Positions 6,201 to 56,471 of a DNA stretch of 64,000 nt are shown here, in pieces. Source of the stretch: Cenococcum geophilum 1.58 (taxonomy: Eukaryota > Ascomycota > Dothideomycetes > Gloniales > Gloniaceae). Positions within the stretch are counted from its first letter, which is position 1. Each line of letters starts with the position of its first letter. A program made the position numbers and the translations under genes. Location of the stretch: positions 310,001 to 374,000 of the forward strand of contig KV748271.1 in assembly GCA_001692895.1 (NCBI GenBank), in the 5' to 3' direction. Under the pieces are notes generated by a model. The model was not told the origin of the DNA and did no database searches. It worked only from the letters and a program-made list of their open reading frames with translations.

Positions 6201-6959
6201 GAAATAGATTATAGTAGGTTATCTTAGCTATAATAATAGCTATTAACCCTTTATAGTATATATTAAGGATAGTAAATCTAGAATTAAAAATATATATTAC
6301 TCTATATTAGGAAGCTATAAATATAGTTTATATATAATTTATATTATTATATAAAGGGGTTAAGAAGTTAATATATTTTTATTTTAGTAGAGTAGAAAAG
6401 TATATATAAGGTATATCCGTATATAAGATAGCCCAAATGCCTAGCTAGAAAACTACTTTACTAAGACTAGTTTTCCTTATTAAAACACTATCTTATTAAT
6501 ATAAACCGCGGATATAGATGGTGTAGCTTTATTCCTAAGAATGACTAAGGCCTATTGCTCTATTTACGCTGCTATAAATTATAACCCGAAGCCCAAGCCT
6601 AGATTTTACGCGACGACACCAACGTAAACGCGCCTCTATATGCCTACTTTGACCTATAAGCGGAGCCTAATATAGGGATATACTAATATTTAGCCGGTAG
6701 AGGTAGCAAGTTTAAGGGTTTTAGCGCGTCTAGATACCAAGAGGAGTGCACTCTAGATAATAGGAATAATATACTATGTAGCGGAGACAGTAATTGGACC
6801 GGACTACTGTCTATATTATCGTCGCTACACGTTAAAACTTTTAAGGAGCGGATAAATAAATAAGCCGGTATCCTAATTGCAAGCATTAAGGATTAGGTAG
6901 ATAAGTAATAAGTAGCAACGCTGTCTAAGGTAATCCTACTAATCTAAGCCGCAGACCGC

Positions 6960-9590
6960 CATTTTTATTCTACCCCTTTACTAGTAAATTCGACTATACC
7001 TTTATAGTATAGCTATATAGTATATAAAGTATATAGGGCGATATTAAGCGGTTGTTAAATAACACCCGGCTTAACCAACTAACATCCTACCTTAGTTTTA
7101 AATTAGCGGATAATTAGGAGGAGAAGTTACACGGACTACTACTAGGTATAGTTAACAAAGAATAGACAAAAACTTGCTATAAACCTATTATACGTATATA
7201 AGGCATCTACCGGCCTTTATATTACTACGTATACTAAGATATTATAAAGGCAATTAAGTTTCTTATTAGTTATAGACCCTTTAAAGATGCCCTTATATAC
7301 GCCCTAACGAGAGTATATAATACTAGTAATTAGAGGGTCTATAATAAACTCTATACTGCTAATTAGTAGTAGGAAACCTAGGCACGGCTACTAGACGGCG
7401 CGACCATTATACTAGTACTACTCGCCATAGATAAAACGTAGCTAATAACATATTACGGCAATAAGTCCTTATGGCTAGTATTTATTACTATTAGTAATCT
7501 TAATTAAAAAACGCGCAGGAAACAGAACTTACCCGCTAACCTACTACTTAGGTTTATTCCTAATATAAAGAGCATAAACTATAATACGCGGAGTGCTTAT
7601 TATTATAAAGCTATAGAGGAGATATTAAAACGTAAGTGCTTAATATATAATAAGTAGGAACCCCATCTAATAAGTCTTATAGCGCTTAAAAGTCTCTAGT
7701 ATAGAGGCATTAATATAGAATGTGCAGATAGGAGAATCCGCTAATATTACCCCATTATATATGGAATAATAGCAGACTATAAGGAGCAGGTTCTTATTAC
7801 TAGTATAAAAAGCTAGCAACACTATATAATATACTAAGTACCACTAAATAGACGCAAAAACCTTTTAGAACGTCACCCGCTTAGGATACACGAGTTAACT
7901 AAAAAGTAGATTGCAGCCTAATAAGTAAATAATATACCTTAAACGGATCTAGATTGGGTGTACCCCATACTATACTTTATATAGAAACACGGCCTAATTA
8001 ATATATACAACGCAATAATAGTAGATATTCTCTATTAACTGCTAAAAGGTATTATTATACGTCTTATTAAATAGATATAAAAGGTAATAAGTAAAGTTAT
8101 TCCCGCTGGTAAGAAACGAAAACGTTATAGGAGAACTGTTTAAGACATTTTAGCAGACAGTTAGATTAATTAGCGTTTTATAGAAATACCTTAATATCCT
8201 AGCTTAAAAGTATTTTATAATACTCCATTTAGTTAAATATTATAGTAGACTGGTAACGAGTAAAAGTTAATCCTAAAGTAACTAATTCCCGCCCTAGCTC
8301 CACTTCTTACTAGCAAGGCACCATATACAATACACTTTACTTAGGCGACACTAGATTTTATTACTATAGTATAATACCAAACTTATAATAAAGAGACACT
8401 CCAGTATATGGAGCATGCGCTATATCGGATTGACAAACTAAAAGGCGTATTTTAAGGTTTCCGACCTAAGATAAGGGATTCGGATAAGGGGCATTTTAAC
8501 TTCCCAAAGTTTTATGCTATAACCCATTTTATAGATTATATCCGCTAGTTTAGCGCCGCTAACGGTTATAATATATTAAACGGAGAAGCTGCCTATAAGT
8601 ACGCTATAAAGGCGTATTAGCATTAAATAAATAAATAGAGTAATTTTAAGTTATAGATCTGCCTCTATAACACCCGGCGCATATCTATACTAGCGACGGA
8701 GAGTTAGTTGTTATATTACAATTCTAGAACTATATCTACCGCAGAATATAGTATGGCACTACAATTAACTAAACTAACGCGTTATATTAATATATAATTA
8801 ACCCCTTAGGGTCTAGATACGGATTAGTACGCCTATATATACTAATACGGTTTTAGTCTTATAAAATAGCGGACAGTAGGGATATTAGCCGATAGTCTTA
8901 AAATATCTAATTTTGAGGACGCGCTTACAGTATTTCTTTATAAATATAGAAGGAAGGTTATTAGCTAGAATTCTATATAAGCTAATATAGACCGCCGTAA
9001 CTTAGACCCTTCTTAGATTAGGCCATACTTTATTTAAGTACACCCCTCCTTAAAATACTAGAAGTGTACGGGCGCGGATCTAAACAACCTTAACCAAGTA
9101 GCTAAGGAAATTATACACTGCGTACCGAATTGGCGAAAGTTAAGTAATTGGAGGCGCGACTATATATAGGTGCAGGAATATACGGCCGACGATAGAGATA
9201 GGAGAGGGAAGACTAGGCCTATAGGTGGAAGAATAGTAGGACAACTCCAGATTATTATTACTATATTAGATTATTCTACTTTAGGGGACAACGGCCTCCC
9301 TCTTTAATTTACCAGGGTAATAGTAAACCTTATACAGTACTAAAACAATAGTAGGCCTTACCCCGTCTATAGTATAATTAAGGTTAAACACTAGTATCTA
9401 ACTACTACTAAAAACCTACGCTCCCTAGCCGATGGTAGATTTTACTTTATACAGTCTATACTATAAAGTGCTTATATAGTTCTAGCTGGTTATAGTTACC
9501 CTAACCTATTCTATATTAATAACTATATTAACTAGAACCAGTATAATATAATATATTTACCAGATTTCTTAGAAGAAGGGTCTCGAGTTA
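6960..9590 (+). pseudogene. Plavaka-type (CACTA-like) transposase, RIP-degraded
   Basis: Once TAG/TAA are read as lost Gln/Trp codons, the plus strand follows the fungal Plavaka transposase layout from about 7200 to 9590. Landmarks in order: FLISYRPFKDALIYA; DGATIILVLLAIDKT, the block carrying the 'DKT' motif (7430-7438), followed by YGNKSLW; a WVYPILYFI-KHGLINI block near 7960; HALYRIDKLKG (about 8410-8450); GHFNFPKFYAITHFIDYIR; an EAAYKY..N.R block; and a C-terminal block with FYINNYINW-like and YLPDFLEEGSRV (about 9510-9590). The N-terminal zinc-finger region upstream of 6960 is not readable with confidence. The element would cut and paste DNA. Dozens of stops make it inactive. Confidence 0.8.
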
Positions 9591-48544: not shown

Positions 48545-48725
48545 TGCCTAAACTACCCCAGTTACACGATCACCTAGCTTATATTATTACCTAGCTCTTA
48601 CGATCGCCCAGCTCGCACGATCGCCCGGGCTTACAGCTCGGCGTGGTCCGGAAAAAGCTTGGCGTGGTCCGAAAGTTCAACGTGGTCCAAACTTGCGGAC
48701 TAGCTTTTAAACCACGATCAGCTTC
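48545..48725. repeat. Left terminal repeat block of the 6.7-kb unit
   Basis: Contains CACGATCGCCCAGCTC-type modules (about 48562, 48596, 48616) and three GGCGTGGTCCGGAA-type modules. The segment 48633-48670 is an inverted match (about 29 of 37 bases by eye) to 55129-55165. GC-rich and little mutated compared with its surroundings. Confidence 0.7.
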
Positions 48726-48959
48726 AGACCACGCCTAGCCTGCGCATATGCAATGCATATGTAATTTAAAGTGAAATAGAAAATGTACGGTTGTTAATTC
48801 GTAAATTGCAAATATCTAAGTTTGTTAATGGCGTATATACCGCGTATATACCCGAATATGGCTATATACGGTAGTGAAAGTTAGTTATTAAAACATAGCC
48901 CGTGCACACGCGTAGCATATCTATAACAACAGTTGCACCATAACTTCTTCTTATAACAT

Positions 48960-51003
48960 CATAGCGTATGCCATAAGTATGTACAACGTAATATAAGCAT
49001 AAGTCTTATATATGCTAATAAAAAGACTAGGGCGAATTCTTAATACCAAATTTTACTATTGTATACGCTACGTATACGCTTACTATAAGCAATTTAACAA
49101 TTACAGACTTTAACAACCCGCAGGTGGCCTCCGCTACTAACCCCTCCGTCTTCAGCTATTACTACGGTAGGTATATGCTCCGTATATACATATACTATAC
49201 TTATAAAGCCTTATAGGCCCCATCCTAAATCCTAATCCTAATTAGGTAACTCCCGGTTAGTTTTATAATTGGATATACACGGTATATGCTTATAATAACT
49301 ATAGTACGCGCCGCTGCAGCAGCTACCGGAGGAAGACGTAAGTGCATATGGAGTTGCATATCTATTGCATATACTAACTATATATAGCTCCGGCTGTTAC
49401 GGTCTAAGATAACGCAAGTATGTAGTGCAACGGCCCTATACACTGCGCATGTATATACTAAGCCTATACTAGACCTACCTAACCCCGCCTCTATACTCTC
49501 CTCGGTAAACAGTATAGTATATATTGCTTATCTATACCCTATACGTAGCATATACTAAGTAGAAATTTAAGTGCGACATAGCCGTCAATAGCACGTAGAT
49601 ATGCGGCCGTGTCTTTACCGCCTAGCCTAGCGTAAGTTTTGCATATATATAGCACCTGCGTATATACTAATACGGCTATAGTATCGCCGGCATGTCCGCA
49701 ATAAGCACAGCGGTACCTATATGTACTACTCTATTATTATAGCCTGGCATATACTTACCATATATAGTAACTAACCCAACTACTAACAACACGCCAATTG
49801 GGGAGCTAGTCGCAGGAGAGAAGTATATGCTACGCATATACAGCGTATATACGAGGCTAATGCAGAATAGCTCCCTAAAGCTCTTCGTTCTCTCTAGTAC
49901 CTAGCGGGATGTAAGATATCTATATAAGCCCGGGTATATCTATACCTATACTCTGTATATACATCGCTAATAGTATATAGCCGTGGCCCTTCGGGGTCTA
50001 GGATCTTAGAGTATACAGATACCTACACGCTTTTCGCGTATATCTACTCTATGCTACGTATATACATTATATAAGCTAACTATATATAGTACCGCAGACC
50101 AAGCGTTTACTGCCCGCTTTAGTCGGCAATTCCATTAAGAGGTAAGACTACTAGTGCTGCTCCCGTATATGCACGGCATACATATATTTATATCTACATC
50201 TATATCTATATCTATATCTATATCTATATCTATATTTATATCTATATCTATATACTTATCCCCCCTAAGTTTAACTCTAGGCCTAAAGGTACTTAAATAT
50301 TTAAGGCTAGTATATACAAAGCATAAGCACGCCCGCCACTTGGGCTACTACCCAATTCTAAAACCAACGCCTAACTCTATATTTAGGAGACTAGTAACGT
50401 CCAACTTTATATATACCCTATATATATATCCCTAAAACTAGCACTTGGTTATATTACTAGTTCTTACGTATATATACTACGCATATACAAACCCCTAATA
50501 TCTTCTACTAACCATAGGTTAACACGCGCTTATACTAAGCGTATGCTAACTAGAGGGAAACAGCGCGTTGGCCCTACCACTCCCTTGACTGGCTTAAAAC
50601 GTAAGGTTAGTATTTTACCTGCATATATTTAGCATATGCTAACAATATATATAGCGCGGCCCGACCCCACCGGGCGACCGTAAGGAGTCGCCCTCCCCCT
50701 TACTATCCACTCGCCGCTAAACCGGTAAGTCTACCGTGCATATGCTCTATATATATATAGCTAATTTTAGGAATAGGCAGGAAAAGGATAACGGGCGTAC
50801 CCCGCCGCCGTGGTTGTGGTAGTAGTAAGAGCTCTAGCAAGTTTCGTCCCCCCCTATTACGTATATTATGCTTATACTCTATATAAGCCGCGGCTACTAT
50901 AGGCGGAACCTGTTGCTTGTCCCGCCTTACCTATAATTCTAAGCTATAAGTCCTAGTATATACTAGGCCTGCATACTATATATACAGCGTACAGTATATA
51001 TAG
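48960..51003 (+). pseudogene. Intron-dense gene A, function unknown
   Basis: Seventeen candidate introns with GTA..AG ends: 49061-49106, 49167-49208, 49246-49304, 49338-49387, 49418-49472, 49505-49562, 49632-49681, 49713-49767, 49823-49870, 49911-49980, 50038-50089, 50142-50280, 50468-50517, 50601-50654, 50725-50770, 50861-50902 and 50956-51003. Several have a clear branch site (ACTAAC, GCTAAC). Joining the exons gives frames interrupted only by TAG/TAA, with segments such as TRRCSSYRRKTSGCYGLR and WPYHSLDWLKTAARPHRA. From about 49770 two frames stay free of TGA, so the exact product is ambiguous. Exons are about 30-190 nt, very short for an ascomycete. The start was not fixed and no domain is recognised. 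It is tail-to-tail with gene B. Confidence 0.55.
50190..50255. repeat. (TATATC)n microsatellite inside an intron
   Basis: About eleven TATATC/TATATT units within the candidate intron 50142-50280. It accounts for that intron's unusual length and for an Ile/Ser-repeat shadow frame. Confidence 0.85.
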
Positions 51004-51159
51004 TTAGTGTTTTAGTGGAGTTTACTTAGTAGATAGGCTAGGCATATACCTAACGTAGGTATATATCAATTAATTCTTCATTTATGGTAATAGAACTCTA
51101 TATAACACTTGCTCTACATATACTATATATATACTCCCTATATACTAATACTATGATCC

Positions 51160-54100
51160 TATACCTACTTCTTAAGATCTACCAGTTCCTTTACCTTATC
51201 GTATACGTCTTTAGCCTGTTTTAATTTATTAATTCATTGCTCTATATTTTCTATACATAGTATATATACCTCCTTTTCTAGCTCCTCTATAGATAGGTAA
51301 GACCTATATCTTTTACCCGTGGTCTGGGGTGTTTAACTTCAAGATAGTAGTGGTATCTGCGCTGCATATACTATAGATACAAGCGACGTATCCGATACTG
51401 ATGCAATATTATTATCTGCTATACTTCTCTATAACATAATCTCCCTACTATATATAGTAGGCTTAGGAGTATTAAATGGGTTCTAGGGGTTCTAGGGAAG
51501 ATTTAGCTTAGGATTTCTAGCTTAATGTTTAGCTACTTTCCGCTATTTCTAGGCTCCTTAAGCTTAGTATATACTTTATATATATAGCGCATATATATAT
51601 ATTGTTTCTGTAGCTGTACTGCTATCCGCTTTAAGTTATAATAATTTCTCCATATATTATCTACTCCCGTCTCTTTATATAGCTCTTATATATTAAATAT
51701 TTCTTATATATAGAGTTTAAGCCTATAATAAAATATTAGTATATATAATACATATACAGAACATATACATATACCGTAGTACTGTAGTAAGTACGCATAG
51801 GTTTCGACCAGTAAAATTATTGTCTTAAAAGTGACTACTTTCACTAATTCTAGTATACTTCCGTATATATACCTACCACTTATAAGGGACCTTTAACTTT
51901 TCCTTTACAAGCCCGGCTAGTATCTATATTTTCTTCTTATTATTTATCTAGGACGTAAGCTCTAGATAAAGCGTGTATATGCTTTATATACGCTCAATCA
52001 GTTTCTACTCTATCTACGCTTCCTATATCTACTCTATAATATATCTTACTTTATAGATTAAAAAGCGCTTTACAAAGTTCCGTTTTATATATACTAGGTA
52101 GAATACAAGTATATACTAAAGGTGTTCATCCTATTTACGGGATGGGTTAATTATATATAGGAAATCTCTAAAGCCTATATATTGTTAGCATATATAAAGC
52201 GTATATAAAGCATATGCTGAGTATATACTTACCGCCAGCTTATTTCTTGCATATATTAACTATAGCCGTACGAAGTCCGATTCTATAAATATATGCAAAT
52301 TATATAGACGATTAGGCAGTATTGCCTAAAACCTTAAATATAAGCTAAAACATTTTTACGTACGCAGTACGTGTTTCTAGGTTAAGAAAGGCGTATACCT
52401 ATACCTTAATTCCTGTTATAGGTATTAGCTTATATATAGCATATACGTAGTATAGGGTATATATACGTTTAGAATTCTTATCCCACCCTACAATTAAGAA
52501 TAGATTCGTTTTACCTTAAACCATTTTAAATAATAGGTCCATTTCAATACATATTACGCGTTAGAATACCTTAGCTTATATATACGTATAGCATATAATA
52601 AGGAAATGTTATCGTCAAAGTTATAAATTTCCCAAATCCATTACTTGGTATTCTCTTTATATTAATTAATAGAGAATTCGCGTTATACACCTGCTACGCT
52701 TAGGCTCTATATATACTTAGCATATATCTAACCTATACTTACCTATATATGCTATTCCTTCTAGGAATTATAGCATCCTCTCCTTTTAAATTAAAGCAGT
52801 AATTCGATCCTTAATATTAAGACTACTATACACTACGCGTAGTATCTACGTCCTATACTTTCTATATAAAGCATAGTATTACGGGGATAGAATAAATCGA
52901 CCTATATTATAGTAAGCAGTTGCGTTTATATATACTATACATATGCGGAGTATACGTGTAGTAAGGCTTAGGACTTCCACCTGCTTTATTGCTTTAACTA
53001 CATCATTTATAAGGTTAATTAGTAGTTTTATTAGGTATAGTGGATAGTATATATAAGAATTCCGCGTAATAAGGCAAATATAAGGATACTATACTATATT
53101 AATAGGAATATAGCAATCTAATAATACACCACATATTCGGCCTACTACCCTACCTTAGCCTTACGGGTGGTCGAATCCTATATAGGGTTAGTATATGCGT
53201 TACGTATATAGTATGCATACATTACTTACCACAATATTTTCGCTTTAATGTTAAATATCCAATATAGGTATATTCTCGTTTAAGTTCCTAAACTCTATAT
53301 TTAACAAGTAGACAAAAGTACTAAATATCTACCCTAGCAGTCGTTGGTAATAAAGGCCAGGCAGTATACTATAGTTTAGTATTACTGCTACTAGAATAAC
53401 TAATAAACTCCGTCTGTATAATATAAGCATATATTGCGCATATACTAACTAACGTAATCTATAAGCCAGTGGTACCAACAAGCAAGTGGTACCACTCCAA
53501 AAACTCACCAAAAACCCCAAAAATCGTTCTTTTAATATCTTAACAACGGCTTAATAATAAATTATAAAAATTTAAAATGAGACTCTTCTACCTATTTTAA
53601 GACCTCTATTAAAGTTTTAAAGTAATTAGTTTCGCCATTATTAGTATATTAAGATTTAGCTTTTAAATTTAAGCCTAATTATTATATCTTAAGAATTACT
53701 TACTAAATTACTTTAAAACTTTAATAGAGGTCTTAAAATAGGTAGAAGAGTCTCATTTTAAATTTTTATAATTTATTATTAAGCCGTTGTTAAGATATTA
53801 AAAGAACGATTTTTGGGGTTTTTGGTGAGTTTTTGGAGTGGTACCACTCGCTTGTTGGTACTACTGGCTTATAGATTACGTTATATGTATACTCTATGCC
53901 GAAAAAACATTATTAGTCTACTTTTACTACATACACGTTCTTATATACTAGGGTAGATACACTACCGCCATAATTATAAAATACCGTGGTAATAGCTGTA
54001 TATTATAAGTATATACCTAATATATATAAATAATGCTTACTTCTCTATACTTTGCTTAAGCTTTTTATTAATCTCTACTGCCTTATATAGACGACTGCTA

Positions 54101-54670
54101 AGCTTTCATAGGTCGTTAATAGATTTAAGCTTAACCCTATTATATGCGGGGCATATATAGAGGACATCCGTATAGGCGTACTCGCAGTATCTAATACCGC
54201 TATATTTAAACGCTTAATAAAATACTTTTCTACTCTCCTAATTACTATTTTCTCCAAGGAGTTATAGTTATATAATTTTAGGGTCGCCGGTTTTATAGAA
54301 TAAGAATTAAATCTATAAAAGAGGCATAAATCTAGTATATGCCTAGCATGTGCATTGCTTACCTTAGACATATACCGCTTAATAACCTTATATACCGTTT
54401 CTTTATCTACATCTATAGATAGCAGAGGTATTACTTTATAGATAAAGTATGCAATTCCTTCTTTTCCAGTTGCTAGATATTCTAGTATTATAATATAGTC
54501 TACTACCTCTTAGACGACGATTTAATACTTGCCGCAGGAGCTAATAAGTGCTCCATAGTCTTAGAGTGTGCTCTAGCTATTATAAGTATATACATAGCCT
54601 ATGCATAGAGTCATACACAGTCTTACCCTTAAGAGACCCATATAAAATAGAAGCCGCCGTTATATACCAT
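51160..54670 (-). pseudogene. Intron-dense gene B, function unknown
   Basis: Minus strand, likely ATG at 54668-54670 (MVYNGGFYFIWVS). Candidate introns: 54577-54626, 54313-54362, 53996-54040, 53414-53892 (carrying a 430-bp MITE), 53178-53229, 52902-52955, 52707-52742 (only 36 nt), 52413-52466 and 52175-52232. Splicing keeps one frame through eight junctions with only TAG/TAA stops. Segments include LEYLATGKEGIAYFIYKVIP, YCEYAYTDVLYICPAYNRVK, LPGLYYQRLLGQIFSTF-like and QYVLKWTYYLKWFKVKRIYS-like. The C-terminal part (51330-51160) is a coiled coil (IEELEKEVYILCIENIE). A Cys pair in CEYAYTDVLYIC might be a zinc site. No family is recognised. Intron positions below about 52130 are unclear. Confidence 0.55.
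53452..53881. mobile_element. 430-bp foldback MITE with TA target duplication
   Basis: Two arms of about 170-175 bp are inverted copies: ACGTAATCTATAAGCCAGTG... at 53452 and its complement ending ...GATTACGT at 53881, around a spacer of roughly 80-90 bp. TA flanks both ends (53450-53451, 53882-53883), the Tc1/mariner/pogo target. The arms match almost perfectly, with a few transitions. It lies inside a candidate intron of gene B; removing it restores an intron of about 47 nt. No coding capacity, so mobilisation would need a transposase in trans. Confidence 0.88.
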
Positions 54671-54909
54671 CTTAACCCTTCTCTTCCTCCTCCTCCTCCT
54701 TATCTCCAATACTCTCTCTATTAATTATATCATCTTAAGAACTATCGTCTTCGTATTTAACGTTAGGTGCGATCTAGAGTACCTACGTATACTTAGCATA
54801 TACGCAGCATATGGTTGTAGACACTAACTAGTAGGCCGTTCAGCCACCCTACTATACTCTCGTTTACTTTAGTATAACTTTTACCTATTATTAGTATAGC
54901 GGGGCACGT

Positions 54910-55000
54910 ATAAATACGCGTATATATATATATATATATGTGTTTGTATATATATGTCTTTATATCTATATCTTCGTGTATATACATAGCATATACTCTA
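54910..55000. repeat. TA/TG dinucleotide tract and intron-type motifs
   Basis: (TA)n with TGTGTTTGTATATATATG (about 54917-54960), then GTGTATATACATAGCATATAC. It lies upstream of gene B's start and could be its promoter region or a further intron; no clear TATA or start signal is assigned. Confidence 0.4.
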
Positions 55001-55059
55001 GATATTTTGGTTTATGCGGTCGCTTAAGTCAAATGCGGCGCTCTGTATGGGTAAAAGTT

Positions 55060-55227
55060 AAGTACCGCCGACCTTTTTCCGGTGGCTCCATCGGTAACCA
55101 CGCTCAGCTTTCGCCGACCCCCATCGGCGACCACGTTCAACTTTTTCTGGACCACGCTCAGCTGCACCCCGCGATCGCCCAGCTCTTACGATCGCCCAGC
55201 TCTCACGATTACCCAGCTCTCACGATC
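55060..55227. repeat. Right terminal repeat block of the 6.7-kb unit
   Basis: GC-rich. Holds GACCACGYTCAGCT-type modules (55096-55165) followed by a tandem of CACGATCGCCCAGCTCT (units at about 55172, 55188, 55205, 55221; 16-17 bp period). These are the same modules as at 48545-48725. The GTGGTCC part is inverted relative to the left block. The array is cut at 55227 by the LTR of the next element. Confidence 0.7.
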
Positions 55228-55422
55228 TGTCACGAAACTCGTATTGAGCTGTTCATTGATGAAATGGGTTGATTGATTGATGATCTTGTCTTGAGGTTGA
55301 TTGATGGTGTCCGTTTGGACCTGGGGCCCCTAGGGCTCTATGAAGAGATTTACGATGCACGTGCCCCGTGCACGTGACTCGTGCACGTGTCCCACGCCTT
55401 AGAGAATACCGATTATCTGACA
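55228..55422 (-). repeat. LTR of a minus-strand Copia remnant
   Basis: 195 bp with TGTCA...TGACA ends. The reverse complement matches the Copia-2 LTRs (56227-56392, 60021-60186). It differs by carrying three CACGTG sites at 13-bp spacing (55358, 55371, 55384), where the others have one or none. A polypurine tract (GCTAAGGGGGTG on the minus strand) lies just inside at 55423-55436, so this is a 3' LTR. Confidence 0.85.
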
Positions 55423-56226: not shown

Positions 56227-56392
56227 TGTCAGATAATCTATATTCTCTAAAGGCGTAGGTCACGTGCACTATAAAGTCTCTTTATAGCTTAAAGCCCTAG
56301 GGCCTTAAGACATAATTAACTAACCTCAAGACAAGATTATCAATCAATCAACCCATTTCATTAATGAACAGCTTAATACAAGCTTCGTGATA
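56227..56392 (+). repeat. Copia-2 5' LTR
   Basis: 166 bp, TGTCAGATAATC ... CGTGATA; the terminal CA is changed to TA. Contains one CACGTG. Confidence 0.9.
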
Positions 56393-56471
56393 GTTATAAG
56401 CCCGGTCCGCCGACTTAAGAAGCTATTCAGCTATTACTTAATTATTTAAAGAAATTCTACCTTATCCTTAT

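What the first reader, a model, noticed from the sequence alone, without database searches (positions are those of the whole stretch)
49061..54626. Introner-like introns in two tail-to-tail genes
About 26 candidate spliceosomal introns, mostly 42-70 nt, on both strands share the half-sites GTATATGC / GCATATAC, and many have ACTAAC-type branch points. Removing them gives continuous frames in two unrelated, unrecognised genes. Exons are unusually short (often 30-190 nt). Unrelated introns should not share a motif, so a common, possibly mobile, origin is plausible. Known introner-like elements in Dothideomycetes are longer and more alike, so this could be a different or older family.
Basis: partly seen in the sequence, partly recalled or inferred. 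Interest (0 to 1): 0.85.

Follow-up and report, generated by a model that had tools for sequence, protein, structure and literature searches.

The report
Transposon introns packed with spaced palindromes
A decayed fungal jumping gene carries about two dozen real introns whose shared motif is an eight-letter palindrome repeated every eleven base pairs in the element's non-coding DNA, probably a landing strip for a protein rather than a sign of mobile introns.

Summary
The region is one RIP-degraded copy of a roughly 6.5-kb DNA transposon (48627-55171) with imperfect TIRs and 9-bp target duplications, one of dozens of copies in its 177-Mb genome. It has two tail-to-tail genes. Gene 1 encodes a C2H2-finger-like protein: a contiguous 355-aa public ORF (P0003) skips 14 introns. 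Gene 2 matches a Candelina protein with ten intron gaps. The 'half-sites' are RIP variants of one palindrome, GCATATGC. It is about 11 times over shuffled expectation in introns, but it also lies in the element's other non-coding DNA and fills gene-less non-autonomous copies that share the TIRs. It sits in 11-bp phased arrays (26 pairs at 11 bp in the window copy, one mismatch allowed, against 0.13 in shuffles; 626 tandem pairs genome-wide against 7 for a control). The core is conserved between subfamilies, introns show little or no extra RNA folding, one intron changes length in 11-nt steps, and branch sites lie in register with the array. Best reading: phased binding sites for an element-encoded protein, as in Arabidopsis VANDAL/VANC, that double as intron building blocks. 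Binding and function are inferred.

The parts
48618..48626 (.). left 9-bp target site duplication CGATCGCCC
   Evidence: the site is a 17-bp tandem repeat, so clearer in other copies (GGAATTCGC in C1, AAATTTAAG in C57; TGCCTGTTC in L062, GTCAGAAGC in L064)
48627..48676 (+). left terminal inverted repeat with CGTGGTC repeats
   Evidence: 29 of 36 positions match the right end; 13 of 19 other gene-1 loci begin matching at 48626-48628
48744..48851 (.). left non-coding DNA with three strict GYATATRC sites, two of them 11 bp apart (48833, 48844)
49085..50910 (+). gene 1: C2H2-finger-like protein, 14 introns
   Evidence: P0003 spliced alignment, no frameshift
49167..49216 (+). gene 1 intron 1
49256..49304 (+). 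gene 1 intron 2
49338..49387 (+). gene 1 intron 3
49418..49472 (+). gene 1 intron 4
49517..49571 (+). gene 1 intron 5 (3 nt longer in the window than in the other copies)
49632..49681 (+). gene 1 intron 6
49719..49767 (+). gene 1 intron 7 (donor reads AT; border ambiguous)
49823..49870 (+). gene 1 intron 8: three motif copies at exact 11-bp spacing (49823, 49834, 49845)
49934..49980 (+). gene 1 intron 9
50038..50089 (+). gene 1 intron 10
50142..50269 (+). gene 1 intron 11, holds a CTATAT microsatellite
   Evidence: read through in P0005
50606..50654 (+). gene 1 intron 12
   Evidence: read through in P0005
50725..50776 (+). gene 1 intron 13
50825..50887 (+). gene 1 intron 14
51602..54872 (-). 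gene 2: transposase-like protein related to P0001 of Candelina submexicana; many RIP-type stops; limits approximate
51723..51774 (-). gene 2 intron
52175..52232 (-). gene 2 intron made of 11-nt units; 47, 58 or 69 nt in 15 copies
52413..52466 (-). gene 2 intron
52694..52742 (-). gene 2 intron
52902..52955 (-). gene 2 intron
53178..53229 (-). gene 2 intron
53414..53892 (-). gene 2 intron broken by a fold-back insertion (about 53448-53885); 47 nt in the 9 other copies where it was found
53996..54040 (-). gene 2 intron
54313..54362 (-). gene 2 intron
54573..54626 (-). gene 2 intron
55129..55171 (-). right terminal inverted repeat
55172..55180 (.). right 9-bp target site duplication CGATCGCCC

Best explanation
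A RIP-degraded Mutator-type DNA transposon whose introns are genuine. Its non-coding DNA (ends, introns, gene-less derivatives) carries helically phased arrays of the palindrome GCATATGC every 11 bp. Most likely these are binding-site arrays for a DNA-binding protein encoded by the element (the gene-1 C2H2-like protein is the first candidate) that activates the element or counters its silencing, working like Arabidopsis VANC on VANDAL. Coding DNA can hold the sites only as introns, and the array unit GCATATGC-TNA itself supplies branch sites (CTNAY) and near-donors (GTNAG), so arrays can grow inside, or perhaps create, short introns. Shown: element, introns, palindrome, phasing, family-wide spread, conservation, register of branch sites. 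Inferred: protein binding, which protein, anti-silencing, intron birth from arrays.
For: Element: TIRs, 9-bp TSDs, dozens of copies. Introns: P0003 skips them while P0005, an ORF 97% identical to P0003 over the aligned third, reads through introns 11 and 12, so intron-bearing and intron-free forms both exist. Phasing: pairs (up to 1 mismatch) at distance 11 in the window element 26 against mean 0.13, maximum 2 in 100 shuffles; distances 10 and 12 give 0 and 1, 13 gives 5; peaks at 11, 22, 33 in introns and two non-autonomous copies, and at 11 in the 5' non-coding DNA. Genome-wide GYATATRC-N3-GYATATRC 626 sites against 7 for the reversed control; of 9 such places fetched (one of them already known), 7 match the element or its derivatives. 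Gene-less copies: 12 and 13 sites against 0.3-0.4 in shuffles. Core defined in one reference copy and measured elsewhere differs less by transversion or gap than the rest of the intron, 0.001-0.027 against 0.071-0.109 in four reference sets with strict sites (0.021-0.046 against 0.079-0.123 with one mismatch). Intron folding z-scores -0.81 to 0.07, exon pieces -0.53 to -0.06. Branch C in array register at 14 of 22 positions, 2 expected. VANC21 precedent: motif in introns, intergenic and terminal non-coding DNA of a MULE, in tandem repeats (PMC5735166, passages).
Against: No binding or expression data. Gene 1 has only a sub-threshold C2H2 match (E 0.09) and no structural match; nothing links it to GCATATGC, and it is not shown to be related to VANC. 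Two of 9 fetched pair sites match nothing in the family. Only 1 of 24 intron positions shows clean 11-nt length steps. Donor register is weak (7 of 24, p 0.004). The motif ends in C and the array spacer often begins with T, so part of the branch register is built in. Introns stay very slightly more alike than shuffles after the motif is masked, which a shared origin would also give.
Confidence: 0.6

Rival explanations
1. Introner-like elements: the introns are copies of a small mobile intron that invaded both genes and keep remnants of its terminal repeats.
For: Shared motif often overlapping donor or branch site; 14 introns in a 355-codon gene; slight similarity left after masking the motif; relatives P0006-P0012 align across ten intron sites as nearly continuous protein, and P0007, P0008 and P0009 come from anonymous contigs of 11,499, 994 and 8,108 bp, hinting at intron gain here.
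Against: Motif is as dense in gene-less derivatives and present in other non-coding DNA; most likeness between introns is the motif itself; the 12-mer GCATATGCTAAC occurs only 50 times genome-wide against 6 for a control, and of 10 such places fetched 3 belong to the family while 7 hold one or two sites and no 11-bp pair, so no spread of such introns into host genes was seen.
Confidence: 0.12
2. RIP-recognition link: RIP senses homology as short units spaced 11 or 12 bp (PMC4858203, passages); 11-bp arrays make unrelated non-coding pieces look alike to it, as decoy, by-product or target.
For: Exact 11-bp period; genome stretch strongly RIP-like; motif loses its CpA/TpG in step with the copy (rho 0.52 and 0.67).
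Against: Same paper reports that the period preference depends on context (10 bp strongest in one set-up); no reason for a conserved palindromic core; having RIP induced by one's own arrays would be costly.
Confidence: 0.1
3. Neutral 11-bp minisatellite slippage in AT-rich non-coding DNA.
For: 11-nt length steps in one intron.
Against: Core kept while 3-nt spacers vary, core conserved between subfamilies, sites at many separate places rather than one array, present on both gene strands.
Confidence: 0.1
4. RNA-level role: palindromes form hairpins that help splicing.
For: Motif fused to the branch site at 11 of 24 positions; the window gene-2 introns fold slightly better than exon pieces (mean z -0.81 against -0.09).
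Against: In the other four sets intron and exon z-scores overlap; motif equally dense in gene-less derivatives; an 11-bp period fits the DNA helix, not RNA stems.
Confidence: 0.05

Closest known systems
Arabidopsis VANDAL21 / VANC21 (and VANC6) sequence-specific anti-silencing
   Same: Mutator-type transposon; short motif dense in introns, intergenic and terminal non-coding DNA, mainly absent from coding parts and rare in other elements; tandem-repeat growth (PMC5735166, passages)
   Different: There YAGTATTAY in one orientation, bound by VANC; here a palindrome at strict 11-bp spacing; gene 1 is not shown to be VANC-like; host is a RIP-prone fungus; no binding data
Mutyl of Yarrowia lipolytica (fungal MULE)
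   Same: 9-bp TSD, short imperfect TIRs, transposase plus a second gene (MutB) in antisense, C2H2 type listed (PMC6446971, PMC5014426, passages)
   Different: No phased arrays mentioned in the passages seen; sequence relation not tested
Fungal introner-like elements (Fulvia, Dothistroma)
   Same: Short introns sharing sequence within a fungus
   Different: [quoted passage not shown] here mainly a phased core is shared, within one transposon family
Symmetrical sister stwintrons of Hypoxylaceae
   Same: Symmetrical intron sequence
   Different: 45-55-nt terminal inverted repeats and proliferation at novel gene positions there (PMC8469720, abstract and outline); here 8-bp palindromes

Membership tests
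Mutator-like element (MULE) | 8-11 bp target site duplication | tested here: met
   9 bp in window, C1, C57 and two non-autonomous copies; C29 9-10 bp with one-base ambiguity
Mutator-like element (MULE) | terminal inverted repeats | tested here: met
   29 of 36 positions
Mutator-like element (MULE) | MULE-type DDE transposase | tested here: inconclusive
   P0001 has D, D, CxxH, E in an order recalled as MULE-like, but no Pfam or NCBIfam match at E 10 or better and an unusable single-sequence model
VANDAL/VANC system | motif dense in non-coding DNA of the family and rare elsewhere | tested here: met
VANDAL/VANC system | VANC protein | tested here: inconclusive
   no Pfam match of P0003 beyond weak zf-C2H2; not compared with VANC directly
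VANDAL/VANC system | protein binds motif and removes silent marks | not testable with these tools
   needs ChIP, EMSA, methylome
Introner-like elements | near-identical introns in many unrelated genes | tested here: not met
Introner-like elements | recent gain at sites empty in relatives | tested here: inconclusive
   nearly continuous relatives at protein level only; no DNA at hand

The most novel reading that the evidence does not exclude
A fungal DNA transposon evolved its own sequence-specific anti-silencing (or RIP-evading) system in which 11-bp phased palindrome arrays are both the landing sites of its zinc-finger protein and, because each unit carries a branch site and near-donor, the raw material from which it has grown two dozen introns: introns made by binding-site arrays.
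Probability: 0.28. Interest if true: 0.9.

Novelty: new variant of a known kind. Interest (0 to 1): 0.72.

Why it matters
If true, sequence-specific transposon anti-silencing arose independently in fungi under RIP pressure, and tandem protein-binding sites become a concrete route to new spliceosomal introns. The 11-bp spacing, equal to a spacing reported for RIP homology sensing, also makes a link to that mechanism testable. Even on the modest reading it explains an apparent introner signal as element-wide non-coding architecture, a trap for introner surveys.

Tried and rejected
Reading the half-sites as two motifs: rejected, both are RIP forms of GCATATGC. Hairpin-assisted splicing: no consistent folding signal. 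Introner spread to host genes: not seen in the fetched places. A home-made multi-copy gene finder gave poor models and was replaced by spliced alignment to P0003 and P0001. Pfam on raw frames found only two meaningless weak hits. P0007 as a probe of the genome found nothing. Fold of P0001 unusable (pLDDT 34); fold of gene 1 gave no PDB match. A first conservation test picked its core columns from the same copies it measured and was replaced. Paper searches on this question; none of the titles and abstract starts listed showed this element or fungal phased arrays, and subscription papers are not held.

Full report
WHAT IT IS. The window belongs to a 177.19-Mb genome and shows strong RIP-type depletion of CpA/TpG. 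The finding lies inside one transposon copy. Of 19 other gene-1 loci, 13 begin matching at 48626-48628; of 19 other gene-2 loci, 15 end matching at 55171-55182. The ends are imperfect inverted repeats (29 of 36) flanked by 9-bp duplications: CGATCGCCC in the window, GGAATTCGC in C1, AAATTTAAG in C57, TGCCTGTTC and GTCAGAAGC in two non-autonomous copies. Two DNA probes gave 44 and 42 matches, the window included, with only 40 candidates scored each, so copy number is a lower bound. CGTGGTC occurs three times near the left end and twice, inverted, near the right (plus one inverted near the left and one inside); these are the likelier transposase sites (inference).

GENES. Gene 2 (minus strand) matches one exon to P0001, a 1021-aa protein of Candelina submexicana (E 4.6e-23, the only hit); tblastn then lines up residues 59-714 in exon blocks, and its exons are found in many copies. 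P0001 has no Pfam or NCBIfam match. Gene 1 (plus strand) found P0003 (E 1e-45, the only hit); P0003 in turn found nine further proteins (only the 7998 candidates sharing most words were scored), among them ones from Tricladium, Phialocephala, a Xylariaceae strain and Aspergillus tanneri. They share a finger-like block, CDIxVNGxxMCG...QPSxRRHxRNxHPGA; the best Pfam match is zf-C2H2 at E 0.09, below cut-off. AlphaFold gives a partly ordered N-half and a low-confidence C-half (mean pLDDT 56), with no PDB match.

INTRONS ARE REAL. P0003 is a contiguous 355-aa ORF from three contigs of at most 1291 bp. Aligned to the window it needs 14 introns and no frameshift over 338 residues. All 14 positions were found in 12 of 16 copies; the other four gave 12 or 13. 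P0004 is a second ORF that skips most of these introns (its 297 aa lack a stretch of about 77 residues that P0003 has). P0005, 97% identical to P0003 over the aligned third, is an ORF that runs through introns 11 and 12: genomic DNA and, most likely, cDNA of the same kind of gene. Gene 2 has ten introns by P0001; P0001 is itself a prediction, and the 15 copies gave 6 to 10 of the ten. One (53414-53892) is broken in the window by a fold-back insertion not seen in the other copies aligned.

THE MOTIF. GTATATGC, GCATATAC and GTATATAC are what RIP makes of GCATATGC. In less mutated DNA the palindrome is seen directly (L061 introns 1 and 3), and the share of unmutated forms follows the copy's CpA/TpG level (rho 0.52, n 16; 0.67, n 15). 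Window introns: 23 hits in 1265 nt, 18 per kb; shuffles 2.1. Across 24 intron positions, 17 carry a strict and 24 a one-mismatch site in at least half the copies. But in the window 10 of 38 strict sites lie in terminal or intergenic stretches and only 4 in exons. Over 16 gene-1 copies the densities are 14.7 (introns), 8.2 (5' non-coding and other) and 2.0 (exons) per kb; over 14 gene-2 copies 16.1, 4.0 and 2.5.

NON-AUTONOMOUS COPIES. Isolated hits of GCATATGCTAAC led to gene-less relatives with the same TIRs. Two delimited ones, of 819 and 869 nt, carry 12 and 13 sites (shuffle means 0.32 and 0.36; two of four loci could not be delimited automatically and were dropped). A third, L074, has 20 sites and 9 phased pairs between its TIRs.

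PHASING. Sites are spaced by 11 bp and its multiples: window element 26 pairs (up to one mismatch) at 11 against 0 at 10, 1 at 12 and 5 at 13, shuffle mean 0.13. With strict sites the window has 6 pairs at 11, 1 at 22 and none at other distances up to 48. The pair pattern occurs 626 times in the genome, the reversed control 7 times. Of nine such places fetched, eight not met before and one known, seven match the element or its derivatives and two match nothing. Intron 8 of gene 1 is GYATATRC-N3-GYATATRC-N3-GYATATRC. One gene-2 intron is 47, 58 or 69 nt in 2, 12 and 1 of 15 copies; a looser search also met 56 and 79, close to but not on the 11-nt steps.

CONSERVATION AND SPLICE REGISTER. With the core defined in one reference copy and differences counted outside its group (for most gene-2 references, in all other copies), transversions and gaps only and so blind to RIP, core against rest is 0.025/0.101, 0.008/0.071, 0.027/0.102 and 0.001/0.109 (strict sites). 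The branch C coincides with the last C of the palindrome at 14 of 22 positions (2 expected; partly built in), the donor at the GTAA-motif phase at 7 of 24. Folding of introns does not differ from exon pieces except slightly in the window gene-2 set. Introns of the window resemble each other mainly through the motif: mean local score 24.84 against 19.94 in shuffles, and 13.13 against 12.54 (maximum of 40: 13.09) once the motif is masked (22 introns, the 128-nt one left out).

MECHANISM. A palindrome at helical spacing, kept in non-coding parts including gene-less copies and avoided in exons, is what a protein that loads cooperatively on one face of DNA would need. The nearest worked example is VANC21 on VANDAL21, whose 9-base motif is concentrated in introns, intergenic and terminal non-coding DNA and evolves by tandem repeats (PMC5735166, passages; PMC10398659, abstract and outline only). 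Fungal transposons are also reported to encode TET/JBP enzymes thought to counter silencing (PMC12730594, abstract start and passages). I therefore propose binding-site arrays for an element protein; the unit's TNA spacer makes CTNAY branch sites, so arrays inside genes are easily tolerated as introns. Protein binding, anti-silencing and intron birth are inference.

LIMITS. No transcript or foreign DNA could be read. Whether relatives lack the introns rests on protein continuity (there are small gaps, and P0010 has an insertion beside one intron site), and anonymous contigs may be cDNA. The copies compared are RIP-damaged to different degrees. Mutator membership rests on ends and TSD, not on the transposase.

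Noticed in passing
53448-53885: Fold-back element (213-nt arms, 92% complementary, 8-nt loop) with apparent TA duplication, inserted inside a gene-2 intron and not seen in the other copies aligned.
   Followed up: partly
48573-48626 and 55172-55231: The transposon sits in a 17-bp tandem repeat (CGATCGCCCAGCTCTTA type), which blurs its target duplication.
   Followed up: no
55227-55311 and 56309-56393: 85-nt inverted repeat, 87% complementary, about 1 kb apart, right beside the element: possibly another small element.
   Followed up: no
50270-50605: A 112-codon exon of gene 1 present in P0003, mostly missing from P0004 and from relatives in other fungi; in-frame variant or lineage-specific insertion.
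   Followed up: partly
L061, about 6240-7100 (minus strand): Little-mutated fragment of the same subfamily with introns 1-3 and the start of intron 4, cut by another insertion.
   Followed up: partly
L009/L029 ends (C57 copy): The C57 copy is nested in another element with related ends and its own GCATATAY sites.
   Followed up: no
L053, L059: Two places share an unrelated repeat with a single GCATATGCTAAC site and no array.
   Followed up: no
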